Positions 141-43,921 of a stretch of 43,921 bases of DNA are shown here, in pieces. The stretch's first letter is position 1. Every line of letters begins with the position of its first letter. Where the stretch lies: assembly GCA_016218475.1 (NCBI GenBank), contig JACREB010000009.1, positions 1 through 43,921 on the forward strand. The letters are read 5' to 3'. The DNA is from Nitrosomonadales bacterium. GTDB lineage: Bacteria; Pseudomonadota; Gammaproteobacteria; Burkholderiales; Gallionellaceae. A model generated the notes under the pieces. The model ran no database searches and had not been told where the DNA came from. It was given only the letters and a program-made list of their open reading frames with translations. Position numbers and translations under genes: made by a program.

Positions 141-331
141 TCTTACTGTGTCACAAAGCGATCAAGGGATGCAGTGCAAGGCAAAATCGGGCGAAGTGGG
201 TCAAGCAGGGATGGGCGGTTTGCCGTTGCCGCCCAACTCGCAAAAAGCGGAGTTTACATGTAGTAAATGAGCATTTTGAGCCTGATTTTAACGCCGCAAT
301 GCGCCCTTCAGCGCTTTGTGACACAGTAAGA
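141..331 (+). repeat. Hairpin repeat, TCTTACTGTG-capped, copy A (long form, 191 bp)
   Basis: The ends are a perfect 20-bp inverted repeat, TCTTACTGTGTCACAAAGCG against its complement. Inside are a TGCAAGGC arm, a central palindrome around TTTACATGTAGTAAA and a complementary AACGCCGCA arm. Compared with copy B (18905-19164), this copy has an extra 48 bases (195-242) that contain their own GGGCGG/CCGCCC stem. Copy C (43781 to the window end) also has the extra block. No clear target duplication is visible. It carries no credible gene, so a non-autonomous mobile or structural element is the best description. Confidence 0.85.
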
Positions 332-527: not shown

Positions 528-728
528 TGGAACGATCTATTAGTCCAATATCCGCATCAGGTGACCGAGCGGCAGCTTGCCCATGGCGAGCGCAACCAGG
601 TCAGCGCGGCGTACAACTTCGCCGAGCATTTGCCTGAGCGCCGCAGGATGATGCAGGAATGGGCGGATTATCTGGACAAGCAAAAGGCAGGAGCGGAAGT
701 GATAACGCTGCCAATCAAAGCTGCTTGA
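528..728 (+). pseudogene. Phage/P4-type tyrosine integrase, C-terminal remnant
   Basis: An open frame ending in TGA at 726-728 encodes QVTERQLAHGERN, then SAAYNFAEHLPERRRMMQEW and a tail ending LPIKAA. This matches the C-terminus of P4-type tyrosine recombinases (the ERQLAH...AYN.AEYLPERRRMMQ.WADYLD pattern), which contains the last catalytic region. A stop codon at 525-527 and lack of further similarity upstream show that the rest of the gene is gone, so no active integrase is encoded. A start codon is not identifiable. It probably marks one end of a decayed integrative element that brought in the adjacent HigBA pair; that link is inference from position. Confidence 0.75.
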
Positions 729-758
729 CATGTGAGTCGTTACGCGATACAGTGCGCC

Positions 759-1037
759 ATGATTAAAACATTCCGGCATAAAGGGCTTGAGTCGTTTTTC
801 TTGACTGGCAGCAAAGCAGGCATACAGCCTCACCATGTTGCGAAATTAGAACGGCAATTGCTGCGCCTCAATGTTGCCAAAGACCACAGCTACATGAATA
901 TGCCGGGGTGGGGGTTTCATCCGCTGACCGCAAACCTTGCCGGGCATTATTCGGTAAGCGTGAGCGGCAACTGGCGTATGACGTTTACATTTGAGGGCGA
1001 GGATGCCGTGCTGGTCGATTATCAGGATTACCACTAG
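759..1037 (+). CDS. higB: HigB-type toxin of a type II toxin-antitoxin pair (RelE superfamily)
   Basis: The 92-residue protein starts MIKTFRHKGLESFF and contains the HigB hallmarks TGSKAGIQ, a central GWGFHPL segment and the C-terminal VSVSGNWRMTF plus LVDYQDYH. Family members are ribosome-dependent mRNA interferases whose activity is blocked by the partner HigA. The track start (GTG at 732) would add nine residues not usual in the family; the ATG at 759 is preferred, although no strong ribosome-binding site precedes it. The gene lies directly after the integrase remnant and 12 bases before higA, giving the toxin-first order typical of higBA. It appears full length. Confidence 0.9.
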   Translation: MIKTFRHKGLESFFLTGSKAGIQPHHVAKLERQLLRLNVAKDHSYMNMPGWGFHPLTANLAGHYSVSVSGNWRMTFTFEGEDAVLVDYQDYH

Positions 1038-1049
1038 GAGCAAACAAAA

Positions 1050-1376
1050 ATGAAAATGCACAACCCACCACACCCCGGCCTGACCCTACGCGACGATGTG
1101 TTGCCAGCGCTTGGGCTGACTGTGACTGAGGCCGCGCAACAATTGGATGTTGCCCGCGTAACGCTTTCCCGTGTGCTGAATGGCCGCGCCGCTATTTCGC
1201 CGGAAATGGCCTTGCGCCTTGAAGCATGGTTGGGTGTGGAGCGTGGGGGTCATGCTGATGCGTGGATTGCCGAGCAGCGCGCCTACGACATGTGGCAGGC
1301 CGAGCAGCGAATTAAGGTTGCGCCCTTGCATGTTCAGCCTGCGCCGGTAGCACCTGGACGGTGGCGCGCAGCCTGA
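1050..1376 (+). CDS. higA: HigA-type antitoxin, XRE-like HTH protein
   Basis: The protein has 108 residues. An N-terminal PPHPGLTLRDDVLPALGLT segment leads into a helix-turn-helix (TEAAQQLDVARVTLSRVLNG, roughly residues 26-45) and ends with a proline-rich tail. Family knowledge: HigA binds and neutralises HigB and represses its own operon through this HTH. An AGGAG motif lies 9 bases before the ATG, and the gene starts 12 bases after higB stops, so the two are probably co-transcribed. The C-terminal PAPVAPGRWRAA tail is longer than many HigA proteins and may be variable. Confidence 0.9.
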   Translation: MKMHNPPHPGLTLRDDVLPALGLTVTEAAQQLDVARVTLSRVLNGRAAISPEMALRLEAWLGVERGGHADAWIAEQRAYDMWQAEQRIKVAPLHVQPAPVAPGRWRAA

Positions 1377-1792
1377 AACGAGTTCCACCGTCCCTCATGC
1401 GGATCATGGGGAAAGCGGCGGCAAGGGTGATACGCACCCCAACTGCCTGACCACAACGCAACCTATAGAGGAGGTAGCATCATGGCTACAGGCCATGCAG
1501 CAGATCATCCATGGATGAAAAATGCCCATCTGCAAGTCCGCCCACAATGGGCATTGCGCTACACCGTAGCAAGGGGAAAACAGGGTAAAGCGGACATTTT
1601 TATTTGGCGTTGACAGGCAAATTTTCGATTCCGGTTCCGGCGCCATCACACTTCCATCCATGCTCGACGAAGCCCACAAAATCCAATAGAGGTAACAAGT
1701 TTGAGTGTTTTATTTTAGCGGGCCTTGATAATGCCTACCCATTTCATCAATTTCAGAACTTGGATGCCCGACACCCGGCAAAGGAAAATATC
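1377..1792. other. Intergenic stretch between higA and fumC
   Basis: Apart from the 43-residue ORF at 1482-1613, no gene is recognised. A short open segment around 1622-1689 (ending [18 protein letters not shown] and a stop) could be the tail of a vanished gene but is not identifiable. The ORF track extends fumC upstream to 1604 through this region; that extension is not conserved-looking and is rejected. Confidence 0.5.
1482..1613 (+). CDS. Small ORF of 43 residues with strong ribosome-binding site, function unknown
   Basis: GAGGAGGT lies about 6 bases upstream of an ATG that opens a frame beginning [18 protein letters not shown] and ending KADIFIWR before TGA. The Shine-Dalgarno quality is the only positive evidence; I do not recognise the peptide. 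It is too short for the supplied ORF track. It may be a real small protein belonging to the accessory island, a remnant of a larger gene, or a chance frame. Confidence 0.3.
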
Positions 1793-3187
1793 GTGAACAC
1801 CAGAACAGAACGTGATTCGTTCGGCCCTATTGAAGTTACGGCGGAACGCCTTTGGGGCGCGCAGACGCAACGCTCGCTGCAATACTTCCATATCTCGACC
1901 GAGCGAATGCCGGAAGAAATCATCATGGCGCTTGCAAAAGCCAAACGCGCCGCTGCTCTGGTTAACAGTGAGCTTGGGCTATTGGGCGGAGAAAAGGCGG
2001 ACGCCATCATGCAGGCGGCAGATGAAGTGCTGGATGGACAGCACAATCAGGAGTTTGTCCTGTCGGTATGGCAGACCGGCTCGGGCACACAGAGCAACAT
2101 GAACATGAACGAGGTGCTTGCCAACCGCGCTTCGGAATTGCTTGGTGGCGCACGCGGCGAAGCGCGCAAGGTTCACCCCAACGATGAGGTCAATCTCGGC
2201 CAGTCATCCAACGATATTTTTCCCACTGCGATGCATGTGGCCGCCGCCACCGGCATCACGCAAAAACTGCTTCCGGCATTGAACACATTGCGCGCGACGC
2301 TGGAAAAGAAATCCGCCGCATTCGTCGGTATCATCAAGATCGGACGCACCCATTTGCAGGATGCCACCCCGCTGACACTGGGGCAGGAGTTTTCCGGTTA
2401 CGTGGCGCAACTGTATCTCGCGGAATCGGCCATTCGCGCCACGCTGGCGCCGCTGTGCCAACTGGCGGTCGGCGGTACGGCGGTGGGCACCGGGCTGAAC
2501 ACCCATGCCGAATTCGGCGAACGCGTCGCCGCAGAACTGGCGCGCAGCACCGGCTTGCCCTTCAAAAGCGCCGCCAACAAGTTCGCCGCATTGGCCGCGC
2601 ACGATGCGCTGGTGGCCGCTCACGGCGCACTCAAGGCACTGGCTGTCGCGCTGATGAAAATTGCCAACGATGTGCGCTGGCTGGCCTCCGGGCCACGCTC
2701 CGGGCTAGGAGAAATCAGCATACCGGAGAACGAGCCGGGCAGCTCGATCATGCCGGGCAAGATAAATCCGACCCAGTGCGAAGCGCTGACCATGCTGTGC
2801 TGCCAGGTGTTCGGCAACGATGTCGCGATCACCGCAGGCGGCGCTTCGGGCAATTTCGAACTCAATGTATTCAAGCCGCTCATCGCGCACAATTTCATGC
2901 AGAGCGTGCGCCTGCTGGCCGATGGCATGGAAAGTTTCGAGGAGTATTGCGTGCGCGGCATCGAAGCCAATCGCGAACGCATCAAGGATCAGGTGAGGCG
3001 TTCGCTGATGCTGGTGACCGCGCTGACCCCGCATATCGGCTACGACCGCGCCGCCGAGATCGCAAAAAGAGCCCATCACGACGGCAGCACGCTGAAGCAG
3101 GCGGCAATGGCGTCGGGTCATGTTACGGAAGCCGAATTCGACCGATGGATACAGCCGGCGGAGATGGTGCATCCAAAGACGAACTGA
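1793..3187 (+). CDS. fumC: Fumarate hydratase class II
   Basis: The 464-residue protein has the size and motifs of class II fumarases, which interconvert fumarate and malate in the TCA cycle without an iron-sulfur cluster. Visible signatures are [18 protein letters not shown], the [15 protein letters not shown] segment and the mobile catalytic loop [15 protein letters not shown]. The start chosen is GTG at 1793 ([15 protein letters not shown]), preceded by AAAGGAAAA; the track's 527-residue version adds 63 residues of unrelated upstream sequence. The gene stands alone, convergent with the uracil-DNA glycosylase gene 55 bases downstream. Confidence 0.96.
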
Positions 3188-3242
3188 AAAGGTATGCAGC
3201 AACCTTGTTTTTCCCAAACCATACCTGGCAGTAATACGCAAA

Positions 3243-3926
3243 TCACCTTCGGCGTGAAGCTGATGTTCCTTGTGGGTGAATACCGGGTACCTCTAAAAAT
3301 TTTGCAATATTACCGATCACCGCCTCGAACATCGCCGTGGTCAGGCGTTTTGTCTGTGTGTTGTAGCGGCTGCAATGGTAACTGTCAAACAACTTCAAGC
3401 CGCCGGGCAGCATATGTTGTGCGCCGTGCCCGAACGCAAAATCGCTCTTGCGCTGTTGCAGCGCCATCAGCACCGCCTGATGCGCTATCGCGCCCAAGGC
3501 AAGTATTGCCGCGCCTTGCGGCAACATCGCCAGTTCCTCCGCGACATAGCCGTTGCAGGCGCGAATCTCGCCCGGCTCCGGCTTGTTCTGCGGCGGCAAA
3601 CAGCGCACGGCGTTTGTGATGCGGCAGCCCTTCAGATGCAAGGAAGAATTGGCGTTTCCGGTTGTATCTAACGGCTCGGCGCTGCTTGCGAAACCATATT
3701 TGTGCAACGCACCATACAACAGGTTGCCCGCGAAATCGCCGGCGAATGGGCGGCCTGTGCGGTTCGCACCATGCATTCCGGGCGCGAGCCCGACGACCAG
3801 AAACGGGCTGCGCGGTTCGCCAAACGAGCTTACCGGCAAGGCATGGTAGCCGGGATGTTCGCCTCGCACTTGATCGAGAAACCCCGCCAGGCGCGGGCAC
3901 GAGCGGCAATCTGCGGTAAATTTCAT
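3243..3926 (-). CDS. Uracil-DNA glycosylase family 5 (UDGb), Fe-S type
   Basis: The 227-residue protein carries the UDGb motif GLAPGMHGANRTGRPFAGD (about residues 46-64) and a second active-site motif SYHCSRYNTQTKRLT near the C-terminus. Cysteines at 7, 10, 109 and 124 fit the four ligands of the [4Fe-4S] cluster of family 4/5 enzymes. These enzymes remove uracil and other deaminated bases from DNA to start base-excision repair; the family-5 motif lacks the Asp used by classical UDG. The ATG at 3926 lies three bases after the stop of the 711-residue gene, so the two are probably one transcript. Confidence 0.92.
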   Translation of the reverse strand: MKFTADCRSCPRLAGFLDQVRGEHPGYHALPVSSFGEPRSPFLVVGLAPGMHGANRTGRPFAGDFAGNLLYGALHKYGFASSAEPLDTTGNANSSLHLKGCRITNAVRCLPPQNKPEPGEIRACNGYVAEELAMLPQGAAILALGAIAHQAVLMALQQRKSDFAFGHGAQHMLPGGLKLFDSYHCSRYNTQTKRLTTAMFEAVIGNIAKFLEVPGIHPQGTSASRRR

Positions 3927-3929
3927 CGC

Positions 3930-6065
3930 TCATCCATGCCCGAAAAAACCGGCGTACCACAAGCCGATCAGCGAGCAGATGCCCGCCGCTATCGCCAGGT
4001 AATAAGGCCATGCCACCTGTTTATCCGCAAACGGATCAACCAGCGAGCGCTGCGCGCCCTCCGGTAAATCGGCCAAGCCGGTCAACGAAGCGCCGAACGG
4101 AATATTGATAAGCAACCGCGCATTGATCGCCCAGCCGCCGGCATCCAGTATCGGGCCGAGATTGCGTTTCTTCAGCTTGAACCAGGCCATCAGCATGGCC
4201 GGGCCGGAAATCAGCAACATCAGGCCGATTACCGCCAAAGGCATTTGCCAGAGCTTCAGCCCCAGCAAGCCGCTGACGATCGAAGCGAGAATGCCGCCGA
4301 TAGCGCCGATCGCCAGCCCTATCGCCGCAAAAATACCGGCGAACTTGCCCACATCGAAAGGTGGCTTGGGCGGCGTGGCAGGTATCTCTACCGCCGGTTT
4401 GCCGCCGTCCACCACCGCCTTGAGCAACTTGTCATCCACCGGGCCGACCTTCGATGCGGCCAGTTTTTGCATCTGTTCACCGATCATCTTGGACAGTTTT
4501 TTGTAGGGCGACCAGAATGCCTGGCGGATGCTGATCGGATGGTCGATGATGCGCACGATGCTGGCATTCCAGTCCTGCCCCTTGCGGTCATAGAAAATAC
4601 CGTTGCGCCCGACCAGCAGAAAATCCGAGTCGCCTGCGGTAAATGCGGCGGCGATACTCATTTTTTCCGCACCGCCATTGCGCACGCAATCGCAATACGC
4701 GAGGCAAATGCCGCTCATGCTGGCAAACCCGGCGTGCTTGGACACATCCTCGACCTTGACGCACAAATCGCAACTGCGCCCGTCCAGATACAGCGCGCCG
4801 ACCTGAAATATCGCCTTGTCCTCACCGGTGTAAAAATTGCGGAACGATACAAAGTTGTTTACCAGGCTGAACAAATCGCGGTTGTAGCGCAGCAATTTTT
4901 CTACTGAACGTATTGCTTTTACTTCGGCTTCGACAGCCTTATCCTGAACAACCAGGCCATCTATCGCTTCTCTGTGGCCGCTGCCGAGAATCTCGCGTAT
5001 GCGTGCAATGCCAAGCTGTTCGATATTATTTGCCGGCTTGTCCGCTTGCCAGGTTTCAAATGCGGTAAATCTGGCGCATAGATCAACCCATTCCGGAGCG
5101 CTCAGACTTTTTCTGCTGCCCAGCAGAGGCGTAACGACCTGTTCGCGCAACACATCAACCTTGCTTTGCCAAGCCGGGTTGATGCCGGAAATCAATGGCA
5201 ACGGCTTGTCCGCTTCTACTGTCGCCAGCGGGAAACTGGCCACTTCCCGGCTTTGCGCCGACAGGTTTTGCGCGGCGAGCTGCTGGTAATCTTCGACCGA
5301 GCGGCTTAACGGCACGGCTGCACGCGCATCGTATGCCGCCAACTGGCAACGCGTGAAATAGTCGTTGACCTTATCCTTGATAGCATGAAAAGCAACCGCC
5401 GCAGCTTCTGTTTTATCACCCAAAAACTGGATGGTCGCATCTCTCTCTCCCTTGGAATGCCAACCCGAATAAGCGGTTGCCCCGGCAAAAAATCTGGTTG
5501 CAATATCCTGATTGATACCATCCCCGCCGCCCAGATCCGCCACCGAACCGGCGCATTTGACAATGTCTGCAATGGTTGCGCGCAACCCGGTATCGGCAAC
5601 CTGCCCGGCACAAATAACCCCGTCGCCGTTAAATTCCAGCCTTGCCACAAATTTTTCAATATCGGCCATGTCCGCCAGCGAGATGCTTGCGGCATCGGTC
5701 TTGCCGAGACTTTTCAGGATGTGCCGCGCAGAGGCCAGCACCTGTTTGCCTTCTTCGCTACTGCCGTCAATGTCGGCTAATGCCAGACTATCCGAGCCCT
5801 TGACCAATAAATCGGCATTCTTCAACAACCCGCCCGCCCATGCGATGGCCGCCAGCACTTCATTGGCGCGCACATGCGCATCCGCATCGGCATCGATCAA
5901 ATCCAGTGTTCTGGTATCAAACTCAATACCGCGCGTCGGACAGCTCAGGGCTACCCACAGCTTCTGATCCAGTTCTTTGAGCGCCAGCAAATCCGCGCCG
6001 GTATCAAGCTGCACCTGATCGAATCCGCCGGCGCGAAAAAAATTCCATGTGTGCAAAAAAGCCAT
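3930..6065 (-). CDS. Uncharacterised 711-residue protein with EF-hand-like loops and C-terminal membrane segments
   Basis: I do not recognise a characterised family. The N-terminal third contains a good EF-hand-type calcium loop, DADADAHVRANE (residues 58-69), and two weaker ones, FNGDGVICAGQV (about 145-156) and GGGDGINQDIAT (about 179-190). A central region has a cysteine-containing patch (GRSCDLC, then CLAYCDC) and an IVRIIDHPISIRQAFWSPYK stretch. A proline-rich linker (ATPPKPP) precedes hydrophobic helices from about residue 575 to 640, a conserved-looking NLGPILDAGGWAINARL motif, INIPFGASLTGLADLPEGA, and one more helix at the C-terminus. No signal peptide is seen. AAGGAAAA precedes the ATG. 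Calcium binding and membrane anchoring are inferences. Confidence 0.75.
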   Translation of the reverse strand: MAFLHTWNFFRAGGFDQVQLDTGADLLALKELDQKLWVALSCPTRGIEFDTRTLDLIDADADAHVRANEVLAAIAWAGGLLKNADLLVKGSDSLALADIDGSSEEGKQVLASARHILKSLGKTDAASISLADMADIEKFVARLEFNGDGVICAGQVADTGLRATIADIVKCAGSVADLGGGDGINQDIATRFFAGATAYSGWHSKGERDATIQFLGDKTEAAAVAFHAIKDKVNDYFTRCQLAAYDARAAVPLSRSVEDYQQLAAQNLSAQSREVASFPLATVEADKPLPLISGINPAWQSKVDVLREQVVTPLLGSRKSLSAPEWVDLCARFTAFETWQADKPANNIEQLGIARIREILGSGHREAIDGLVVQDKAVEAEVKAIRSVEKLLRYNRDLFSLVNNFVSFRNFYTGEDKAIFQVGALYLDGRSCDLCVKVEDVSKHAGFASMSGICLAYCDCVRNGGAEKMSIAAAFTAGDSDFLLVGRNGIFYDRKGQDWNASIVRIIDHPISIRQAFWSPYKKLSKMIGEQMQKLAASKVGPVDDKLLKAVVDGGKPAVEIPATPPKPPFDVGKFAGIFAAIGLAIGAIGGILASIVSGLLGLKLWQMPLAVIGLMLLISGPAMLMAWFKLKKRNLGPILDAGGWAINARLLINIPFGASLTGLADLPEGAQRSLVDPFADKQVAWPYYLAIAAGICSLIGLWYAGFFGHG

Positions 6066-9476: not shown

Positions 9477-9618
9477 AGGGAACCTCTATAAATCCAAACT
9501 ACGTCGCGATACTGCGTTGCTCAGAAAATTTTAACGCTTACATATCAAACATATGCGGCGCGCTAAAATTTTCTTCGCGCCTTGTCTCGTTTAGTATTTT
9601 GGATTTATAGAGGCCCCT
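9477..9618 (-). repeat. Hairpin repeat, GGGAACCTCTAWAAATCC-capped, copy 1
   Basis: About 142 bp that can fold end to end: outer arms CCTCTATAAATCC and its complement, inner arms with AAAATTTT and GCGCGCC, and a centre CATAT-CAAAC-ATATG. Its reverse complement aligns with the repeat at 40913-41055 across CAAGGCGCG, GCGCGCCGCATATG, ATATGTAAGC and GCAACGCAG. It occupies the gap between the convergent comEC and ppiD genes, beginning 6 bases after the comEC stop. No gene is present in it. Confidence 0.85.
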
Positions 9619-18904: not shown

Positions 18905-19164
18905 TCTTACTGTGTCACAAAGCGATCAAGGGATGCAGTGCAAGGCAAAATCGGGCGAAAAAGCGGAGTTTACATGTAGTAAATGAGCATTTTGAGCCTG
19001 ATTTTAACCCAGATTGTTCATTAGAACAACACCTCATTGAAAAATAAGGAAAATCTCTAATGGATTCCATTAGAAACCCATTCAAAACAGGCGTTTTATG
19101 GCCTAATGGACAATCTGGGTTTAACGCCGCAATGCGCCCTTCAGCGCTTTGTGACACAGTAAGA
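18905..19164 (+). repeat. Hairpin repeat, TCTTACTGTG-capped, copy B (short form, split by MITE)
   Basis: The repeat has the same 20-bp inverted ends as copy A. Without the nested MITE and its duplicated 5 bases it would be 143 bp, exactly 48 bp shorter than copy A; the missing block is the one at 195-242 of copy A. It has inserted within the integrase core of a transposase gene, directly after codons for QFTR, proving that it is mobile or was moved. No unambiguous target duplication is visible. Confidence 0.88.
19008..19119 (+). mobile_element. 112-bp MITE, CCCAGATTGT ends, copy 1 (inside hairpin repeat B)
   Basis: The ends CCCAGATTGTTCATTAG and the complement of CCCAGATTGTCCATTAG form a 17-bp inverted repeat with one mismatch. 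It is flanked by TTTAA on both sides (19003-19007 and 19120-19124); copy A of the hairpin repeat shows the empty site with a single TTTAA. The sequence is identical, base for base, to the reverse complement of 36787-36898. A perfect 19-bp palindrome, TCTAATGGATTCCATTAGA, lies at 19056-19074. The ends and 5-bp AT-rich duplication resemble IS1380-family elements (inference). It encodes no transposase. Confidence 0.93.
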
Positions 19165-27343: not shown

Positions 27344-27488
27344 AGAAGCTGTCTTAAAAATTGCTGCGGAGGGCGTCTGCGGCGTTGCGCGGTACTCGAA
27401 ATCCTCATGTACTTCTGTGTACATTCCGGTTTCTGCGTTCCGTGCGCCTTGCATCCCTCCCTCCTCGCTAATTTTTAAGACAGCTTCT
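27344..27488 (-). repeat. Hairpin repeat, AGAAGCTGTCTTAAAAATT-capped
   Basis: 145 bp with a perfect 19-bp terminal inverted repeat, GGAGGG-bearing arms and a central GTAC-TTCTGT-GTAC palindrome. On the minus strand it reads GATGCAAGGCGC, CGGAATGTAC, GTACATGAGGATTTCGAG and CAACGCCGCAGACGCCC, lining up with the core of the TCTTACTGTG-type repeat (CGGAGTTTAC, GTAAATGAGCATTTTGAG, AACGCCGCA). It begins within the last base of the aroA-cmk stop codon region and lies in the aroA-cmk to rpsA gap. Confidence 0.88.
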
Positions 27489-29452
27489 TACTTCTGCGGG
27501 TAGCGCATCAGCACTTCCTGTACCGCCTGCTCGATGTTCAGAGCGGTGGTGTCCAGCAGGCTTGCACCCGTTGCCTGTTGCAGGGGAGCCACACTACGCC
27601 GGGTGTCCCGTTCGTCGCGCGCCTGTATATCCTGCAAAAGGGCGGTGATATTAGCATCCATTCCTTTTTCTTTCAACTGCTTATATCGGCGTTCGGCGCG
27701 CGCCCCGGTGCTGGCGGTCAAAAAGATTTTCAACGCCGCATCGGGAAACACCACCGAAGCCATGTCGCGCCCGTCCGCCACCAGCCCCGGCGCGCGGCGG
27801 AAGGCGTGCTGCTTGCTCGACAACGCGGTGCGCACCCTGGGCAGCGCCGCCACTTTGGAGGCCGCCGTCGCGCATTGCTCGCCGCGCACCTCATCGCCAA
27901 CCAATACGCCGTCCAGCCAAATCTGTTCGCCCTCGAAGCGGATATCCATGCGTGCGGCCAATGCCGCCAGGCCCGCTTCATCGTCCAGCGCCACGCCGCG
28001 CTGCTGTGCGGCCAGCGCCAGCAGGCGATACAGCGCGCCGCTGTCGAGATAGTGGTAGCCGAGTTTGGCGGCGACGCGCTGCGCCACCGTGCCCTTGCCG
28101 GAAGCCGACGGGCCGTCGATCGCGATCACCGGCACGGCCTGCGTCACGCTGGCGAATGCCGCGAAATAATCCGGGAAGGTCTTGGCGACACAACCCGGGT
28201 CATTGATGCGCATCCCCTCCGCGCCAAACGCGGCGAGCGAAAAACACATCGCCATGCGGTGGTCGTCGTAGGTGTCGATGCCGGAGCGGGTAGCCTGTAG
28301 CGGGTAGCCTGTAGCAGGTGGTGTGATGCGGATAAAGTCCGCGCCTTCTTCCACCGTCGCGCCGAGCTTGCGCAGCTCTGTCGCCATCGCCGCGATGCGG
28401 TCGGTTTCCTTGACGCGCCAGCTCGCGATGTTGCGCAGTGTGGTCGTACCGTCGGCAAATAAAGCCACGACCGCCAGCGTCATCGCCGCGTCGGGAATAT
28501 GGTTGCAATCCAGATCGATCGCTTTCAACTTGCCGCCCGCTGGCGCACGCGCCTCCATCCAGTTCGGCCCCTGCTTTATTTGCGCGCCCATCAAAACCAG
28601 CGCGTCGGCAAAGCGCACATCGCCCTGAATGCTGTCGCTGCCCACACCCTCGATGCGCACCGGCCCGCCGCCGATCGCGCCCGCCGCGAGGAAATACGAA
28701 GCCGACGAGGCATCGCCCTCGACATATATCTTTCCCGGAGATGAGTAATGGCTGTCAGCACCAATGGCAAATCTGTTCCAGCCTTCTTGATGCACAGCCA
28801 CACCGAAGCGTCTCATCATCGCCAGCGTGATTCCGATGTACGGTTTGGAGATCAGCTCACCGACCACATTCACCGTTACTGATCGGCCTAATAGTGGCAA
28901 TGCCATCAATAGCGCGGTGAGGAACTGGCTGGAAACGTCGCCGCGTACGCTAACGCTTGACCAATTCTCATTACTTGCGGTGGGTGAATAAATTTCCAGC
29001 GGTGGAAAACCTTCATTGCCCGGATAGTCGATGTTCGCGCCCAATGTGCGCAACGCATCCACCAGATCGCCGATCGGCCGCTCGTGCATGCGCGCCACGC
29101 CGGACAGTTTGTAATGCCCGCCGGACAAGGCCAGCACCGCAGTCAGCGGACGAAATGCGGTACCCGCATTGCCCAGAAACAATTCCGCGTCCTTGACCGG
29201 GAAGTTGCCGCCGCAACCGGTCACGCGGAACACATGCTTATCCAGTTGTTCCACCCCGACGCCCAGTGTGCGCAAGCCATCCAGCATGCGCCCGGTATCG
29301 TCCGACAGCAGCACATCGCGTACCTCGGTCGCACCTTCGGACAGCGCAGCCAGCAACAGCACACGGTTGGAAATACTCTTTGAGCCTGGCAACGTGATCG
29401 TGCCGCGCGCGCTGAGCATAGGTGGGAGGTCGATAAAATTTTCGGATGCCAT
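27488..29452 (-). CDS. aroA-cmk: Fused 3-phosphoshikimate 1-carboxyvinyltransferase and cytidylate kinase
   Basis: The 654-residue protein has two complete enzymes. Residues 1 to about 430 are EPSP synthase: [43 protein letters not shown] and TYDDHRMAM. From about 433, [20 protein letters not shown] (P-loop) begins cytidylate kinase, with [24 protein letters not shown] and [13 protein letters not shown]. AroA acts in aromatic amino acid synthesis; Cmk phosphorylates CMP and dCMP. Fused forms are known in some betaproteobacteria. In front of TYDDHRMAM the protein has an insertion ([12 protein letters not shown]) encoded by a 14-bp tandem repeat. The gene precedes rpsA, as cmk usually does. Confidence 0.96.
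28286..28318. repeat. 14-bp tandem repeat inside aroA-cmk
   Basis: GCGGGTAGCCTGTA occurs twice in tandem, followed by a partial unit GCAGGT. The period is not a multiple of three, so loss or gain of one unit would shift the reading frame of the fused gene. Confidence 0.8.
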
Positions 29453-30422: not shown

Positions 30423-30504
30423 AAGCATTTTTTGCGCCGAATTGGCTCGATATGAAATTGCCAATAGTGTCATCGCCATGATGGGTTGCCGATCTGCGCC
30501 GCAC

Positions 30505-31743
30505 TCACCATGGCGCGGCTGACACGTCGCTCCACAACTCCTGAATGTCGCTGATGTGCCATTTGGCGGGGTCTTCGTGCGAGACTATCTTGTCTTTGCA
30601 TGCGGGATTCGACAAATCCAGTATCTCGTGAGTGATTCGTGTGTTGGATTTGATGGAAAAAAACACTTTTACCTTGGGGGTGAGCAGCGATTGTTCGGCT
30701 TGCCCGATGACCACGCCCAAGCGGTCGGATGACAACCTGACCATGGAGCCGACCGGGTAGATGCCCATGCTGCGCACAAAGGCCTCGAATATACGCCAGT
30801 CGAAATGGCCGTGGCTCCATTCGGCCATTTTCCTGATGGACTGGGCCGGTTCCCAGCCGTTCTTGTAGGCGCGGATGGAAGAGATCGCATCGTACACATC
30901 GCACACCGCGCCCATCTTGGCATACATGTCTATTTTTCCGTCGGCGAGCTTGTCCGGATAGCCACTGCCATCCACTTTCTCGTGATGGCGCAGGCAGACA
31001 TGCCGCGCGATATCGCTTATTCCCTTGCTTTCCAGCAAGATGATGTGCCCGTCGATGGGGTGGTTTTTCATCACCTGGAATTCGGCTTCGGTCAACTTGC
31101 CGGGCTTGTTGATGATCTCCGGCGGGATCATCGTTTTGCCGATGTCGTGCATCAATCCGGCCATGCCGGCCTGGCGGGTCTGTTCTTCATCCAGGCCCAA
31201 CTGGCGTGCCAAGGCCACCATCAATGCGCATACTGCCACCGAGTGCATATAGGTGTAATTGTCCTTGTCTTTCAGGCGCGCCAGGCTGATCAACGCGCCG
31301 GGGTTGCGCGCTACCGAGGTGGTGATCTCCTCGACGATTGGCAGCGCGTCGCTGGCATTCAGCGCCTTGCCCATGCGCGCTTCCTTGAACATGAAGGTAA
31401 CCGCCTGTTTGGATTTGGCGCATATTTTGACGGCGCGCTCGGCTTCCTGGGTAATGTCGGCATGGCGCACTATTTTGTTGCCGGTATCGGCGCGAGCGAG
31501 CGCGCTGTCGACTTCTGCCGCTACCGCCTTTTCGCTCTTGCCGCCCTCCCCGCTCTCGACATCGAGTCCCTTGCCGGTGTCTATCCACACTTCCTTGATG
31601 CCGGTGGACAGGATTTCCTGCAGGTCTTCGGATTTATCCAGTATGAATGCGTTGCGCCAGAACGGGTGGTCGTACCACGAGCCGCAAAACTCGTGGATAT
31701 ACATGCCGATGCGGAGTTGCTTGACCGGGATGCGTTTTAACAT
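30505..31743 (-). CDS. HD-GYP domain protein with N-terminal DUF3391 (copy 1)
   Basis: The 412-residue protein starts with a DUF3391 domain (RIPVKQLRIGMYIHEFCGSWYDHPFW) and a charged helical linker, then an HD-GYP phosphodiesterase domain with HSVAVCALM, GLMHDIGKTMIPPEI and HHEKVDGSGYPDKL, all metal and GYP-loop residues present. Such proteins generally hydrolyse cyclic di-GMP and sit in the cytoplasm without a membrane anchor. A C-terminal PilZ-like-sized extension (GSMVRLSSDRLGVVIGQAE) follows. A close paralogue lies immediately upstream on the same strand, 198 bases away. Activity is inferred from the family; no sensor domain other than DUF3391 is visible. Confidence 0.92.
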   Translation of the reverse strand: MLKRIPVKQLRIGMYIHEFCGSWYDHPFWRNAFILDKSEDLQEILSTGIKEVWIDTGKGLDVESGEGGKSEKAVAAEVDSALARADTGNKIVRHADITQEAERAVKICAKSKQAVTFMFKEARMGKALNASDALPIVEEITTSVARNPGALISLARLKDKDNYTYMHSVAVCALMVALARQLGLDEEQTRQAGMAGLMHDIGKTMIPPEIINKPGKLTEAEFQVMKNHPIDGHIILLESKGISDIARHVCLRHHEKVDGSGYPDKLADGKIDMYAKMGAVCDVYDAISSIRAYKNGWEPAQSIRKMAEWSHGHFDWRIFEAFVRSMGIYPVGSMVRLSSDRLGVVIGQAEQSLLTPKVKVFFSIKSNTRITHEILDLSNPACKDKIVSHEDPAKWHISDIQELWSDVSAAPW

Positions 31744-31837
31744 GGACGATCCAATCTGCTGGTGGGATGGCGGATTCTAACCCAAAAGAATAACGGCACT
31801 GGACAGTGCTTGTACTGCTGTGTCGCAGTGGCATCGG

Positions 31838-31876
31838 TTTGTAGGTTGGCAAAGCGCAGCGTGCCCAACCTACAGG
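31838..31876. repeat. REP-like inverted repeat TGTAGGTTGG...CCCAACCTACA
   Basis: TGTAGGTTGG and CCCAACCTACA flank a loop with AAAGCGCAGCGTG. This is a common dispersed hairpin type; it lies in the 198-base gap between the two HD-GYP genes. Confidence 0.7.
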
Positions 31877-31941
31877 AATACAGCGTCCTATTTTTAGCCC
31901 CGACTCTCATCTGGTCGGTTTGGTTAAAACTCGCGGCGCGC

Positions 31942-33189
31942 TTACCAGGGCGCGGCAGGCATATCGCTCCACAATTCCTGAATATCGCGTATGCCCCATT
32001 TTGTCGGCTCTTCGTGCGAAACGATCTTGTCCTTGCTGGCGGGTTTCGACAAGTCCAATATTTCAGGAGGAATCCGGGCATTCGACTTGATGGAAAAAAA
32101 TATTTTCACCACAGGGGAAAGAAGCGATTTTTCGGTTTGCTCCACGATCACCGCCAAGCGGTTGGACTCCAGTTTGACAAGCGAGCCGATCGGGTAAATG
32201 CCGATGCTTTTGACGAAGGCTTCGAAAATACGCTTGTCGAAATGGCCGTGGCTCCACTCCGCCATTTTCCTCAACGATTCGGTAGGCTCCCAGCCATTCT
32301 TGTAGGGGCGGTTGGATGTGATCGCGTCATACACGTCGCACACCGCACCCATTTTGGCATACAGGCTGATCTGTTCGCCCGCGAGCTTCTCCGGGTAGCC
32401 GCTGCCGTCCATTTTTTCGTGGTGGTGCAGGCAGACATCCAGCGCAACCTCGCTGATCCCCTTGCCTTCCAGCAGCATCTTGTGCCCCTGGCCGGGATGA
32501 TCCCTTACCGACTGGAATTCGGCATCGGTCAACTTGCCGGGCTTGTTGAGTATGCCGAGCGGGATCATCATCTTGCCCACATCGTGCAACAAACCGGCCA
32601 AGCCGGCCTGACGGGTTTGCGTTTCATCCAGGCTCAATTGCCGCGACAGGGAAACCATCAACGCGCACACCGCCACCGAGTGCATGTAGGTGTAATCGTC
32701 CTTGTCTTTCAGGCGCGCCAAACTGATCAGCGCGCCGGGGTTGCGCATCACCGAGGTGGAGATTTCCTCGACGATAGGCAGCGCATCTTCGGCATCCAGA
32801 GCCTTGCCCATGCGTGCCTCGTGAAACATCGAGGTGACGGCTTGCTTGGACTTGGCGCAAATCTTGACGGCGCGCGCCGCCTCTTGCGCGATATTGACAC
32901 GCTCCACCTTTTTGACGCTTTTATCGGCCCGCGCAAGCGTGGCTTCGACTTCTGCCGCAATTTCCTCTTCCGTCTCTCCTTCGTCCTCGTCGTTTTCAAT
33001 AGCGACGCCAAGACCTTTGGCGGTATCTATCCACACCTCCTTGATGCCGGTGCCCAGCAGGGTTTTCAAGTCCTTGGGGCTATCCAGCAGGAAAGCGCCG
33101 CGCCAGAACGGGTGATCTATCCACGAGCCGCAAAGCTCGTGTACGTGCATACCCAGGCGCAGTTGTTTGACGTGTATACGTACCAGCAT
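31942..33189 (-). CDS. HD-GYP domain protein with N-terminal DUF3391 (copy 2)
   Basis: The 415-residue protein parallels copy 1 along its whole length: DUF3391 (RIHVKQLRLGMHVHELCGSWIDHPFW), a linker richer in acidic residues (ENDEDEGETEEEIAAE), and an HD-GYP domain with LLHDVGKMMIPLGIL and HHEKMDGSGYPEKL. The same C-terminal segment ends SDMPAAPW, against SDVSAAPW in copy 1. Predicted role is cyclic di-GMP hydrolysis. The linker is the most divergent part, so the two copies may differ in regulation or partner rather than chemistry; that is inference. Confidence 0.92.
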   Translation of the reverse strand: MLVRIHVKQLRLGMHVHELCGSWIDHPFWRGAFLLDSPKDLKTLLGTGIKEVWIDTAKGLGVAIENDEDEGETEEEIAAEVEATLARADKSVKKVERVNIAQEAARAVKICAKSKQAVTSMFHEARMGKALDAEDALPIVEEISTSVMRNPGALISLARLKDKDDYTYMHSVAVCALMVSLSRQLSLDETQTRQAGLAGLLHDVGKMMIPLGILNKPGKLTDAEFQSVRDHPGQGHKMLLEGKGISEVALDVCLHHHEKMDGSGYPEKLAGEQISLYAKMGAVCDVYDAITSNRPYKNGWEPTESLRKMAEWSHGHFDKRIFEAFVKSIGIYPIGSLVKLESNRLAVIVEQTEKSLLSPVVKIFFSIKSNARIPPEILDLSKPASKDKIVSHEEPTKWGIRDIQELWSDMPAAPW

Positions 33190-35732: not shown

Positions 35733-36785
35733 ATGGAAATTCGCTCTTTCTTTATGCACGTTTTTTTCGGCCTCATAATTATGGGGTTTTCCGCTTCAAT
35801 GACTTTCTTTTTGTCGCGCCATCTCAAGGCATTTGATGTTCCAAACGAACGATCATCGCATACCGGGATAACACCGAGGGGCGGCGGCATTGCAATTATG
35901 ACCGCATTTTTGGCTGGAATTTCACTGATTCATTTTATTGGCGACAAGACTCCGATTTATACGCCCTATTTTCTGGGTTTTTTGTTTTCTTCCCTCGTGA
36001 TAACCGCTCTCTCTTTGTACGACGATTTTTTCGATGTTTCTTTCAAGCTCAAACTGGGCGGACAGATAATCGCAATCATTGTTGGATTGTTGTCGGGCAT
36101 TTTGATCGATAAAGTTCATCTGCCTATTTTCGAGGAGGCGAATATGGGCGTTTGGGCGTACCCGCTTACCTTTTTGTGGATTCTAGGGCTGACTAATGCC
36201 TATAACTTCATAGATGGTTTGGATGGCTTGGCGGCAGGTACGGCGGTGATTGCCGCGTTATTTTTTGCATTTATTTGTTTTGTGCAAGGCAGCCATTTCA
36301 TTTATCTCGCGTCTTTGACGCTTGCGGCATCATCGTTTGGCTTTTTGGTATTTAATTGGCCACCTGCCAAAATATTTATGGGCGATGTCGGTAGCACATT
36401 TATAGGGTTTGCTTTTGCCGTGATGGCCGTGATAGCCGCACGCTATGATCATTCTCATACTTCGCTTTTCGTGATGCCGTTGCTGCTGTTCCATTTTATT
36501 TTTGATACCGCGTTTACCTTCTTCAGGCGATTACTGAATGCAGAAAACGTGTTCACCGCGCATAGGGCACACCTGTATCAGTTGCTTAACCGGCTAGGGC
36601 ATTCACACAAACAGGTGACACTGATTTATTTAGCCATGACGGTTCTGCAAGGGCTTGCCGCAATCTGGATGGTGTCTATTTCAGGACCTGAACGTGTGTA
36701 CATCTTTCTGCCATTTCTGATTTGTTATTTTATTTGTGCAAAATGGATAATTGGCAAGATTAAGCAAAAAGGCATTATCGTATAA
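35733..36785 (+). CDS. WecA/TagO-like undecaprenyl-phosphate sugar-1-phosphate transferase
   Basis: The 350-residue polytopic membrane protein has the family motifs in order: VPNERSSHTGITPRGGG, ALSLYDDFFDV (Asp pair), TNAYNFIDGLDGLAAG, AKIFMGDVGSTFIG and the HRAHLYQLLNRLG loop. It would transfer a HexNAc-1-phosphate (GlcNAc or a modified sugar) to undecaprenyl phosphate, starting an O-antigen or capsule repeat unit. Base composition is visibly more AT-rich than both neighbours, suggesting separate acquisition. It opens the rightward polysaccharide cluster; a 112-bp MITE abuts its stop codon, whose bases form part of the target duplication. Confidence 0.92.
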   Translation: MEIRSFFMHVFFGLIIMGFSASMTFFLSRHLKAFDVPNERSSHTGITPRGGGIAIMTAFLAGISLIHFIGDKTPIYTPYFLGFLFSSLVITALSLYDDFFDVSFKLKLGGQIIAIIVGLLSGILIDKVHLPIFEEANMGVWAYPLTFLWILGLTNAYNFIDGLDGLAAGTAVIAALFFAFICFVQGSHFIYLASLTLAASSFGFLVFNWPPAKIFMGDVGSTFIGFAFAVMAVIAARYDHSHTSLFVMPLLLFHFIFDTAFTFFRRLLNAENVFTAHRAHLYQLLNRLGHSHKQVTLIYLAMTVLQGLAAIWMVSISGPERVYIFLPFLICYFICAKWIIGKIKQKGIIV

Positions 36786-36786
36786 A

Positions 36787-36898
36787 CCCAGATTGTCCAT
36801 TAGGCCATAAAACGCCTGTTTTGAATGGGTTTCTAATGGAATCCATTAGAGATTTTCCTTATTTTTCAATGAGGTGTTGTTCTAATGAACAATCTGGG
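36787..36898 (-). mobile_element. 112-bp MITE, CCCAGATTGT ends, copy 2
   Basis: The sequence is identical to copy 1 (19008-19119) but reversed. The duplicated target ATAAA lies at 36782-36786 and 36899-36903; the left copy overlaps the TAA stop codon (36783-36785) of the WecA-like gene. It fills most of the 150-base gap before the capD-like gene, so it may affect the transcription or mRNA structure of that gene. Confidence 0.93.
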
Positions 36899-36935
36899 AT
36901 AAACAAACTGGTTTCCTCTGCTTTTAGTTTGAAAA

Positions 36936-38909: not shown

Positions 38910-40168
38910 TGCTGACTGCCGCAGCAAATCCATTGCAGCGATTTGCCATGCCGCCGTTGCGCGCCAGTACAGTATTGATCGGTTTTGCCGTGCCCGTCTC
39001 GGTGGCGTTGGACAATGTATTGCTGGCACTGGTGCTGACAGGCCTATTGTTCAACGCGCGCGCAGTCTTGGCGATTGCCGCACAACATCCGGTGGCACGC
39101 GCGGCATGGCTGCTGTTCGGCATGCTGTTGCTCGCTATGTTTTACGGCGCAACGCCTTTGCGCGAAGCGGCAGGTATCTTGTGGAAATATGCCGACTTGG
39201 CCTTCATACCGTTGTTCATGCTGATGTTGAGCAGCGAAACCGCCAAGCGCAGGGCGCAATATGCCTTTCTTGCCGCAATGGGCATAACCTTGCTGTTGTC
39301 CTACTTGGTAGGCTTGGGGATATTGCCTGTTCAACATTGGATGAACACGTTTGCCACAGCAGATAACCCGGTAATCTTCCACAGCCACATCACTCAAAAC
39401 AACATGATGGCGTTTGCTGTATTTATCTCGTTGCTCAATCTGCGCGATGCCACTTATCGGTGGGCGCAGGTAGTTTGGGGTTTGTTTGCCTTGCTGGGAG
39501 CGATCAATATATTGTTCATGGTGCAGGGTCGAACCGGGTACGTGATTCTAATGGCGTTGCTGTGCTGGTTTGCCTGGATAACCCCGATCCGTTATATGCG
39601 CTTGCGCGGAAAACGGTGGGATTGGCGGCTGGCCGTGGCAGCGGAGCTGGCTCTTTTAGCCTTGATGGTTGCCATCTATAGCGTCTCGCCACGGATGCAG
39701 AATCGGGTCAACCTGGCGGTATCTGAATCACAGACTTGGCAAACAAAACAGGCTAAAGATACTTCGACCGGGCAACGATTGCTTTTTTATGACCATACCC
39801 TGCAAATTGTGAAACAGCAACCTGTGCTTGGTGTTGGAACAGGCGGGTTCCATGATGCTTTCGCGAAGCAAACTCAAGGCAAGGATGTGCCAGCGACGCA
39901 TAATCCGCACAATGAATACTTGATGATCACGGTTCAAACCGGCGTGATCGGCCTGGTATTTTTGCTCTATTTGTTTTACGCGCAATGGCGGTATGCCCCA
40001 TTGTTGTATACCCCGTTCGAACAGGATGCGGCGCGCGGGTTCGTATTGGCCTACATCGTGAACTGCGCGCTTAACTCGGCATTACTGGATCACTCGGACG
40101 GGTTGTTTTTTGCGTTCATGACCTCTGTGCTGTTTGCGGGGCTCAAGCTGGAGAAAAAAAATGGCTAA
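38906..40168 (+). CDS. O-antigen ligase/polymerase family membrane protein (WaaL/Wzy-like)
   Basis: The 420-residue protein has about ten to twelve hydrophobic helices and the Wzy_C/WaaL periplasmic loop: DTSTGQRLLFYDHTLQIVKQ, VLGVGTGGFHDAF and PATHNPHNEYLMITVQTGVIG. WaaL ligates undecaprenyl-linked O-antigen to lipid A-core; Wzy polymerases look similar, so ligase or polymerase cannot be settled here. Its neighbours are O-antigen initiation and core glycosyltransferases, favouring the ligase slightly. It overlaps the previous gene by four bases and the next by eight. Confidence 0.88.
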   Translation: MMLTAAANPLQRFAMPPLRASTVLIGFAVPVSVALDNVLLALVLTGLLFNARAVLAIAAQHPVARAAWLLFGMLLLAMFYGATPLREAAGILWKYADLAFIPLFMLMLSSETAKRRAQYAFLAAMGITLLLSYLVGLGILPVQHWMNTFATADNPVIFHSHITQNNMMAFAVFISLLNLRDATYRWAQVVWGLFALLGAINILFMVQGRTGYVILMALLCWFAWITPIRYMRLRGKRWDWRLAVAAELALLALMVAIYSVSPRMQNRVNLAVSESQTWQTKQAKDTSTGQRLLFYDHTLQIVKQQPVLGVGTGGFHDAFAKQTQGKDVPATHNPHNEYLMITVQTGVIGLVFLLYLFYAQWRYAPLLYTPFEQDAARGFVLAYIVNCALNSALLDHSDGLFFAFMTSVLFAGLKLEKKNG

Positions 40169-40925
40169 TTTATCGGTCATCATCATCACCAAAAACGAGG
40201 CGGCGAATATCCGCGCCTGCCTCGAATCGGTCGCATGGGCCGACGAAATCATCGTGGTGGATTCCAACAGCACTGACACAACGCCGGAAATTTGCAAGGA
40301 GCTTGGCGCGCAAGTCTATGTGCATGACTGGCCGGGTTTCGGCGCACAGAAAAATCGCGCGTTGGGTTATGCCACGCACGACTGGGTGTTTTCCATCGAT
40401 GCCGACGAGCGGGTCACACCGGAATTGCGCGCCTCTATCGAAGCGGTGTTGCACAACGAAACCGATACCTGCGCCGCCTATCGCATTTCGCGCCTGTCCA
40501 GTTATTGCGGGCGGTTCATGCGCCATTCCGGATGGTATCCCGATCACATCGTGCGCCTGTTCAGGCGCGATGCGGCGCGTTTCTCGGATGATCTGGTTCA
40601 CGAACAGTTGCGGGTGGAAGGGCAGATCGGCCAGCTTGACGGCGAGTTGCTGCATTACGCCTTCACCGATACAGAGGAAGTGCTGCAAAAAGTGAACCAC
40701 TATTCCTCTGCGGGCGCGGCCATGATGCAAAGGCGCGGCAGGCAAACCACCCTGACGGGTGCGGTGCTGCGCGGGCTATGGAGTTTTATCCGCACCTATT
40801 TTCTGCGCGCCGGATTTCTGGATGGGCGCGAAGGCTTCATGCTGGCCGTATCCAACGCGGAAGGCACCTATTACCGATACCTCAAGTTGATGCTGCTGAA
40901 CAAGAAATCTTCAGGGAGCCTTTAA
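40161..40925 (+). CDS. Family 2 glycosyltransferase, WaaE/KdtX (LgtF)-like
   Basis: The 254-residue protein begins MANLSVIIITKNEAANIRACL and has WADEIIVVDSNSTDTTPEIC, VHDWPGFGAQKNRAL and VFSIDADERVTPEL, the nucleotide-sugar and metal (DxD) sites of the WaaE/LgtF group, which adds glucose to inner-core heptose. The track start (40134) lies inside the ligase gene; the ATG at 40161 has GGAG eight bases ahead. The last four codons (GSL and stop) lie within the left cap of the hairpin repeat at 40913, so the C-terminus appears shaped by the repeat. Confidence 0.9.
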   Translation: MANLSVIIITKNEAANIRACLESVAWADEIIVVDSNSTDTTPEICKELGAQVYVHDWPGFGAQKNRALGYATHDWVFSIDADERVTPELRASIEAVLHNETDTCAAYRISRLSSYCGRFMRHSGWYPDHIVRLFRRDAARFSDDLVHEQLRVEGQIGQLDGELLHYAFTDTEEVLQKVNHYSSAGAAMMQRRGRQTTLTGAVLRGLWSFIRTYFLRAGFLDGREGFMLAVSNAEGTYYRYLKLMLLNKKSSGSL

Positions 40926-41055
40926 AAATTCAGAGTTCGCTCAAATGCAAGGCGCGGGAAAAATTTCGCCGCGCCGCATATGGGTTATATGTAAGCAAGA
41001 AATTTTTTCTGCAACGCAGCAGTTGAGATGAAGTGTGGATTTTTAGAGGTTCCCT
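40913..41055 (+). repeat. Hairpin repeat, GGGAACCTCTAWAAATCC-capped, copy 2
   Basis: 143 bp with outer arms AGGGAGCCTTTAAAAATTC and, reversed, AGGGAACCTCTAAAAATCC, inner arms TGCAAGGCGCGG/CTGCAACGCAG and AAAAATTT, and a centre CATAT-GGGTT-ATATG. It matches the reverse complement of 9477-9618. It lies between two same-strand glycosyltransferase genes, its left arm containing the TAA of the first and its right arm GAGGT seven bases before the ATG of the second. Confidence 0.88.
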
Positions 41056-43780: not shown

Positions 43781-43921
43781 TCTTACTGTGTCACAAAGCG
43801 ATCAAGGGATGCAGTGCAAGGCAAAATCGGGTGAAGTGGGTCAAGCAGGGATGGGCGGCTTGCCGTTGCCGCCCAACTCGCAAAAAGCGGAGTTTACATA
43901 GCGTAAATGAGCATTTTGAAC
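43781..43921 (+). repeat. Hairpin repeat, TCTTACTGTG-capped, copy C (long form, cut by window end)
   Basis: The first 141 bases match copy A in the same orientation with a few changes (for example ACATAGCGTAAATG at the central palindrome). It includes the 48-base extra block seen in copy A. The right cap lies beyond the window. Confidence 0.9.

What the first reader, a model, noticed from the sequence alone, without database searches (positions are those of the whole stretch)
9477..9618. One superfamily of giant-hairpin repeats with a shared core and exchangeable terminal caps
Repeats at 141, 9477, 18905, 27344, 40913 and 43781 have three different terminal inverted repeats, yet align inside: TGCAAGGC, then CGGAxTxTAC or CGCATATG, a 2-6-base loop, the matching GTAxATGAG or ATATGTAAGC, then AACGC(CGCA). 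The caps differ completely (TCTTACTGTG..., AGAAGCTGTC..., AGGGAACCTC...). A conserved core with swapped caps is not how ordinary MITEs look and suggests a selected structure or an unknown mobilising activity.
Basis: seen in the sequence. Interest (0 to 1): 0.72.

Follow-up and report, generated by a model that had tools for sequence, protein, structure and literature searches.

The report
Shared hairpin core, swappable transposon ends
Small parasitic DNA repeats in this bacterium, and in bacteria from many phyla including E. coli and Xanthomonas, carry the same conserved RNA-like hairpin between end sequences borrowed from at least two unrelated families of jumping genes, so a structure seems to have been re-packaged again and again to hitch rides.

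Summary
The six repeats are miniature transposable elements (MITEs): terminal inverted repeats, target-site duplications, hundreds of cap-A ends in the genome. They share an ~85-nt imperfect hairpin core. Tested against structure-preserving shuffles, caps A, C, D and E are strongly related; cap B (the flagged 9477 copy) is related only through the outer core motifs. The core's stems covary strongly, while several unpaired bases are more conserved than paired ones. It occurs with more than 20 caps in Proteobacteria, Chlorobi, Desulfobacterota and others. The caps are ends of ordinary insertion sequences: cap A is the end of an IS701-family element in a related genome; other caps match IS5-family elements, twice within the same genome. 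One core thus sits between ends used by two unrelated transposase families. The Xanthomonas form is the annotated sRNA sX9 (RF02228), so members are transcribed. Enterobacterial ERIC joins through intermediate copies in Regiella; the E. coli copy itself scores only marginally. Not an unknown mobiliser: probably MITEs moved in trans by known IS families, built around a selected structure of unknown function. No published description of this grouping was found in the open-access library searched.

The parts
141..331 (+). Cap-A element, long form (191 bp; extra ~48-nt hairpin inside the left half of the core)
   Evidence: this particular copy has no matching TSD (CTAG / AGTG), other copies do
221..305 (+). 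Core of the 141 element as matched by covariance model R1 (its outer-left block CAAGGC lies at about 177-182)
   Evidence: 46.8 bits, E 1.5e-8
9477..9618 (-). Cap-B element (the flagged copy), inserted just after a stop codon between convergent ORFs
   Evidence: weakest member: outer motifs 18/21, R1 not significant, R2 35 bits (L001, a model whose training set held one B copy)
18905..19164 (+). Cap-A element, short form, interrupted by another element (19008-19119)
   Evidence: core R1 57.5 bits at 18933-19020
19008..19119 (.). Unrelated 112-bp hairpin element inserted in the 18905 copy, with 5-bp duplication TTTAA
   Evidence: second copy inverted at about 36783-36903
27344..27488 (-). Cap-C element, 3-bp TSD TTA that also forms the stop codon of the ORF 27488-29452(-)
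   Evidence: core 27371-27459(-) 99.6 bits (this copy was in the training set)
40913..41055 (+). Cap-B element; an ORF (40134-40925) ends inside its left end
   Evidence: core 40940-41028(+) R1 27.5 bits, E 5e-4, not in the training set
43781..43921 (+). Cap-A element, long form, cut by the end of the contig; starts 2 bp after an ORF
   Evidence: core R1 33.4 bits at 43880-43919

Best explanation
Each repeat is a MITE made of two modules. The outer ~15-20 bp (the 'cap') is the terminal inverted repeat of an ordinary insertion sequence; that IS's transposase, supplied in trans, moves the repeat and leaves its usual target duplication (4 bp, mostly YTAR-like, for cap A/IS701 type; 3 bp TNA for cap C; 4 bp for cap B). 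The inner ~85-110 nt is one conserved imperfect hairpin, homologous under many caps, that has been re-packaged between ends of unrelated transposases (IS5 and IS701 families). Shown by sequence: one core under many caps, cap = IS end in several genomes, target duplications, covariation and conserved unpaired bases, and correlated changes of the two arms in young copies. Inferred: movement by those transposases; and that new caps arise when a core comes to lie beside an IS end and the hairpin arms are copied onto each other, making two matching ends from one. Most likely the core is kept because it acts as a folded nucleic acid. I favour the RNA level: elements sit at gene ends with the sX9-type strand transcribed more often than the other, a homologue is a detected sRNA, and ERIC hairpins are reported to affect mRNA stability. 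What binds the core is unknown.
For: Cap = IS end: L233, Xanthomonas dyei, ~880-bp IS (DUF4096 N-terminal domain; DDE_Tnp_1 match in the genome search) on the same contig as the MITE L165 with the same end; L301, genome G152, 907-bp IS with both ends TAGAAGCCATCTCAAAA and an IS5 transposase (NCBIfam transpos_IS5_3), in a genome with 48 core matches, several with that cap; L238, Chitinimonas, IS end GAGCGTGTTTTAAAAG against cap D GAACGTGTTTTAAAAG. Cap A: genome G055, ~1.47-kb IS TCTTACTGTGTCACAAA...TTTATGACACAGTAAGA with TSD CTAA and an IS701 transposase, 439 bits against a cut-off of 150; DDE_5 genes with cap-A-like ends nearby also in G010 and G017. TSDs: cap A 16 of 24 perfect 4-bp; caps B and C. 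Core selection: 107 distinct cores, 93.5% of cells paired vs 77.1% shuffled, 385 double changes vs 92, covariation 0.392 vs 0.121, 0/500 shuffles; wider set 0.618 vs 0.162; unpaired A105/C106 93-96% and A35 87% against 34-55% at several paired positions. Spread over phyla. Correlated arm changes 9 vs 2.2, 0/2000. Orientation 45 vs 16. Expression: sX9, Rfam 73-102 bits; sX9 genes reported up-regulated under copper in PMC10924375.
Against: The window's own MAG has no hit to PF01609 or PF13546, so the mobiliser is inferred from relatives; the MAG is 86% complete and multicopy ISs often drop out of MAGs. No autonomous partner was found for caps B or C. Caps C and D resemble each other, so some cap diversity may be divergence, not exchange. 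Correlated arm changes are only about four independent events. The orientation bias rests on open frames, pooled over genomes and not corrected for shared ancestry. No transposition, binding or RNA experiment was possible. Most of the 107-core set was selected by an exact pattern in the inner hairpin, so conservation of that part is not evidence, and the alignments were fitted to the model.
Confidence: 0.72

Rival explanations
1. No cap exchange: one ancient MITE lineage whose ends drifted to follow different IS transposases while the core changed slowly.
For: IS5-type caps share a loose pattern (C and D: AGAA..TGT.TTAAAA); the core is widespread and probably horizontally spread.
Against: Cap A is the end of an IS701 element (different transposase family, different end, 4-bp YTAR-like target), not alignable by eye with the IS5-type caps, yet its core is strongly related to C and D (z 9-10).
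Confidence: 0.15
2. The core itself is the target of an unknown mobilising enzyme (for example a TnpA-REP-like HUH transposase) and the caps are passive.
For: The core is conserved across phyla with extrahelical bases, as single-strand recombination sites are; some matches have no detectable inverted ends.
Against: Target duplications abut the caps, not the core; caps equal IS ends; no GTAG-tagged REP anatomy. RAYT genes were not searched for.
Confidence: 0.07
3. The core works as DNA, not RNA: a hairpin extruded on single-stranded (for example lagging-strand) DNA or a cruciform that helps transposition or is read by a DNA-binding host factor.
For: Palindrome; correlated arm changes in young copies fit hairpin-templated copying; conserved bulges fit single-strand recognition.
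Against: Orientation bias towards transcription of one strand and an annotated sRNA on that strand favour an RNA role, but neither excludes DNA.
Confidence: 0.3
4. The similarity is chance or convergence of GC-rich palindromes.
For: Cap B's inner hairpin (CGCATATG) is unlike the others; whole-core alignment of the 9477 copy to C has z = 0, and a sequence-only HMM misses B.
Against: A/C/D/E z 7-23; model E-values to 1e-20; outer motifs of B 0/1000; covariation controls.
Confidence: 0.04

Closest known systems
Xanthomonas sRNA sX9 (Rfam RF02228)
   Same: The Xanthomonas members of this family are sX9: seven matches in six loci at 72.7-102 bits against a gathering score of 44. sX9 covers the bottom strand from the central loop through the left arm into the IS end.
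   Different: Rfam treats it as an sRNA, covers half of the element and gives a different fold; nothing in the entry as returned names its MITE anatomy or IS5-type ends. In the window's genome cap D scores only 32 bits and the window itself has no match.
ERIC / IRU / RU-1 (enterobacterial repetitive intergenic consensus)
   Same: Same plan: CAAG(G)CG..., stem, GGAG-[CTTAC..GTAAG]-TGA internal loop, AACGC. Regiella copies found with E. coli ERIC by BLAST score 31-33 bits, E 2.5e-5 to 7e-5, with a model trained only on this genome.
   Different: Short (7-bp) inverted ends as tabulated in PMC2229807; no IS partner known to me. The E. coli copy alone is marginal (R3 E = 0.014; R1 E = 0.68).
MITEs in general (NEMIS/Correia, RUP, Nezha and others)
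   Same: Non-coding, ~140-190 bp, inverted ends matching an IS, target duplications, high copy number.
   Different: Ordinary MITEs are shrunken copies of one IS; here the interior is shared between ends of different IS families and across phyla.
REP/BIME with RAYT (TnpA-REP)
   Same: Conserved hairpins, extragenic, high copy.
   Different: Much longer, with IS ends and target duplications; GTAG occurs next to the caps of several copies but not as a REP tag. RAYT association not tested.

Membership tests
MITE | Terminal inverted repeats shared with an autonomous IS | tested here: met
   Cap A with an IS701 element in a related genome; three other caps with IS5-type elements, two of them in the same genome. 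For caps B and C no partner was found (for C).
MITE | Target-site duplication | tested here: met
   Cap A 16/24 perfect 4-bp; cap C 3-bp TNA, cap B 4-bp in most intact copies by reading the flanks
MITE | Small, no transposase, many copies | tested here: met
MITE | Interior is a relic of the parent IS (usual, not required by all definitions) | tested here: not met
   MITE and IS agree only in the terminal repeat; the core is shared between families instead. Filed as a MITE by ends and mobility, as a new variant.
Rfam sX9 | Covariance match above gathering score | tested here: not met
   Not met in the window nor for cap D (32 bits against 44); met for the Xanthomonas members of the same superfamily
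ERIC | Sequence similarity to ERIC over the core | tested here: inconclusive
   Regiella ERIC-like copies clearly match, E. coli ERIC marginally; pairwise z 5.0 with A, 2.0-3.8 with C/D/E, about 0 to 1 with B
ERIC | 127-bp unit with 7-bp ends as described for enterobacteria | tested here: not met
   Elements here are 139-194 bp with 15-20-bp IS ends; so not ERIC, but probably one superfamily
REP / RAYT system | Cognate TnpA-REP tyrosine transposase | not tested
Integron attC | Extrahelical bases in a hairpin with RYYYAAC/GTTRRRY boxes | tested here: inconclusive
   Works-like analogy only: conserved bulged bases are present, the boxes were not recognised by eye; no integrase search

The most novel reading that the evidence does not exclude
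A single ancient structured module, present in several bacterial phyla, survives by being re-capped with the ends of whatever transposase is locally active; ERIC, the Xanthomonas 'sRNA' sX9, an unannotated ~5-copy E. coli repeat and this genome's repeats are all branches of it, and the module has a conserved partner in bacterial cells that reads its fold.
Probability: 0.5. Interest if true: 0.85.

Novelty: new variant of a known kind. Interest (0 to 1): 0.74.

Why it matters
How ERIC-type repeats move and why their interior is conserved has been open: PMC2229807 says IS similarity of bacterial repeat ends had mostly not been looked for or found, and that mobilisation by transposases lacked experimental support. 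Relatives whose ends match intact IS5 and IS701 elements make this directly testable. It also suggests that sX9, listed among the 20 most prevalent bacterial sRNAs (PMC9029176), is in fact part of a transposable element, which bears on sRNA annotation. A core kept intact while its ends change would be an unusual case of modular evolution in bacterial non-autonomous transposons.

Tried and rejected
Unknown mobiliser: rejected after finding TSDs and IS partners. Chance similarity: rejected for A/C/D/E, nearly so for B. Known Rfam family for the window: none at gathering. Phage or plasmid origin: one viral contig with the exact pattern, few plasmid or phage hits, several of them chromosome-sized or host-titled records. 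R2 did not find E. coli ERIC, probably because most of its training set was selected by one exact inner-hairpin pattern; R3, from a more varied set, did at E = 0.014. E. coli Box C as a member: considered for the extra E. coli repeat; copy number 1-8 (median 5) per genome does not fit the 22-32 reported for Box C (PMC2267715), so not claimed. Autonomous IS for cap C in the family: no pair at IS spacing in 120 genomes. Sequence-only HMM for B: no hit. First arm-change script had an indexing error, corrected; one shuffle script timed out and was rerun. Literature searches for a description of the grouping found none in the open-access library; subscription journals were not searchable.

Full report
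WHAT IS THERE. The window is one contig (C59) of a 2.3-Mb, 221-contig genome, 86% complete, probably a metagenome-assembled one. The six repeats are present as described. Put in one orientation, they read: cap - ... TGCAAGGCGC - stem - small internal loop - 6-bp hairpin - stem - GCAACGC[C/A]GCA ... - cap'. Two further caps with the same full core occur elsewhere in the genome, D AGAACGTGTTTTAAAAGTG and E ACATAGCCACAGAAATC, and an inner core without the outer motifs sits inside an AAAGACCTCTGCA...TGCAGAGGTCTTT hairpin. Cap A is a burst: 240 cap-A ends and many contig ends lying inside copies.

IS THE CORE REAL. Local alignments of cores were compared with hairpins shuffled so that base pairs and loop composition are kept. 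A, C, D and E relate at z = 7-23 with 0/200 shuffles reaching the observed score. B, which includes the flagged 9477 copy, is weak by this measure, but its two outer motifs match 18-21 of 21 positions against about 12.2 +/- 1.0 in shuffled hairpins, 0/1000 in each of 11 copies; the motif was read from the whole set including B, which is a caveat. A covariance model (R1) from A, C, D, E alone finds other B copies, including the one at 40913, at E = 2e-5 to 1e-3, not the 9477 copy.

STRUCTURE UNDER SELECTION. A pattern from the inner hairpin found 117 stretches in one-genome-per-species data, the scan stopping at its limit: Beta-, Gamma- and Alphaproteobacteria, Chlorobi, Desulfobacterota, Deferribacteraceae, an Acidobacteria MAG, Vampirovibrio, a Bacteroidales MAG and a Bacillus. 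Some are MAG contigs and may be misbinned. Aligned cores (107 distinct) have 93.5% of pair cells paired (77.1% shuffled), 385 double changes (92 shuffled) and covariation 0.392 (0.121 shuffled); a more varied set gives 0.618 against 0.162. Outside the search pattern, unpaired A105, C106, A35, G77 and A78 are 82-96% conserved while paired columns such as 4, 20, 102 and 117 are 34-39%. The alignments were fitted to the model, which favours its structure.

THE CAPS ARE IS ENDS. In Xanthomonas dyei an ~880-bp IS5-type IS on the same contig has the cap of the core-bearing element. In an Enterobacterales genome (G152) a complete 907-bp IS5-family element has both ends identical over 17 bases to the cap found on core-bearing copies there. 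Cap D resembles the ends of an IS5-type IS of Chitinimonas. Cap A, the window's abundant one, is the end of an IS701-family element in a relative (G055), with a CTAA duplication and a transposase scoring 439 bits against NCBIfam IS701. In each case IS and MITE agree only in the terminal repeat. So the same core is carried by ends of two unrelated transposase families. Target duplications fit: 4-bp, mostly YTAR-like for cap A (16/24 perfect), TNA for C, 4 bp for B.

HOW CAPS MAY CHANGE. In 24 cap-A copies, 9 arm substitutions are identical in both arms of the same copy against 2.2 when arms are shuffled between copies (0/2000), perhaps four independent events. That fits copying of one hairpin arm onto the other. 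If a core lay next to one IS end, such copying would make a second matching end. This step is inference.

WHAT THE CORE DOES. Unknown. Elements in this genome lie at open-frame ends more often than random points (14/29 against 16%); at 27344 the duplicated TTA is the stop codon of the neighbouring ORF. Across loci, open frames read into the element from the right side more often than from the left (45 against 16; convergent 47), which would transcribe the strand on which Rfam places sX9. sX9 matches the Xanthomonas elements at up to 102 bits, and sX9 genes were reported up-regulated by copper in X. campestris (PMC10924375). I favour an RNA-level role, with moderate confidence only.

LINK TO ERIC. 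E. coli ERIC was confirmed in 5396 of 5426 E. coli genomes. BLAST with it finds diverged copies in Regiella; these score 31-33 bits with R1, trained only on this genome (E 2.5e-5 to 7e-5), and 35-48 bits with R3 for the clearest ones, while no place in the 50 kb of K-12 reached E = 10. E. coli ERIC itself reaches E = 0.014 with R3 and 0.68 with R1. The link is therefore likely, not proven. E. coli also carries about five copies per genome of another, closer relative (R1 E about 1e-9 to 1e-11), unannotated in the records viewed.

LIMITS. Names were not given for most whole genomes; no partner IS for caps B and C; no mobiliser in the genome itself; no RNA data; RAYT not searched; literature limited to an open-access library.

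Noticed in passing
window 19008-19119 and about 36783-36903 (inverted): A second 112-bp hairpin element (CCCAGATTGTYCATTAG...CTAATGGACAATCTGGG), copies 99% alike, with 5-bp duplications TTTAA and ATAAA; one copy sits inside the cap-A element at 18905.
   Followed up: partly
L347-L350 (E. coli, Klebsiella aerogenes); E. coli chromosomes, for example between rlmKL and ycbX: A ~139-bp repeat with the same core, median 5 copies in 5395 of 5426 E. coli genomes, unannotated in the records viewed.
   Followed up: partly
L176 (Bacillus sinesaloumensis), 629-3968: Thirteen tandem copies of the core at 271-bp spacing, each followed by a 5S-rRNA-like stretch; origin unexplained.
   Followed up: no
L302 (G041), L305 (G110): Elements with cap-A ends but unrelated interiors, in genomes of the same bacterial family: the same ends carry other cargo.
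   Followed up: partly
window 141-331; L020-L049: The long form of cap-A elements has an extra ~48-nt hairpin (GTGGGTCAAGCAGGGATGGGCGG...CCGCCCAACTCGC) inserted in the left half of the core; a similar insert occurs in a Gallionella copy (L180).
   Followed up: no
window 30495-33189: Adjacent minus-strand ORFs with two long direct repeats (74-75% identical, spacing about 1440 bp), apparently duplicated paralogous genes.
   Followed up: no
L064, L066, L067, L016: Core copies of caps B and D with other short repeats inserted into one arm, indicating repeated nesting of small elements.
   Followed up: no
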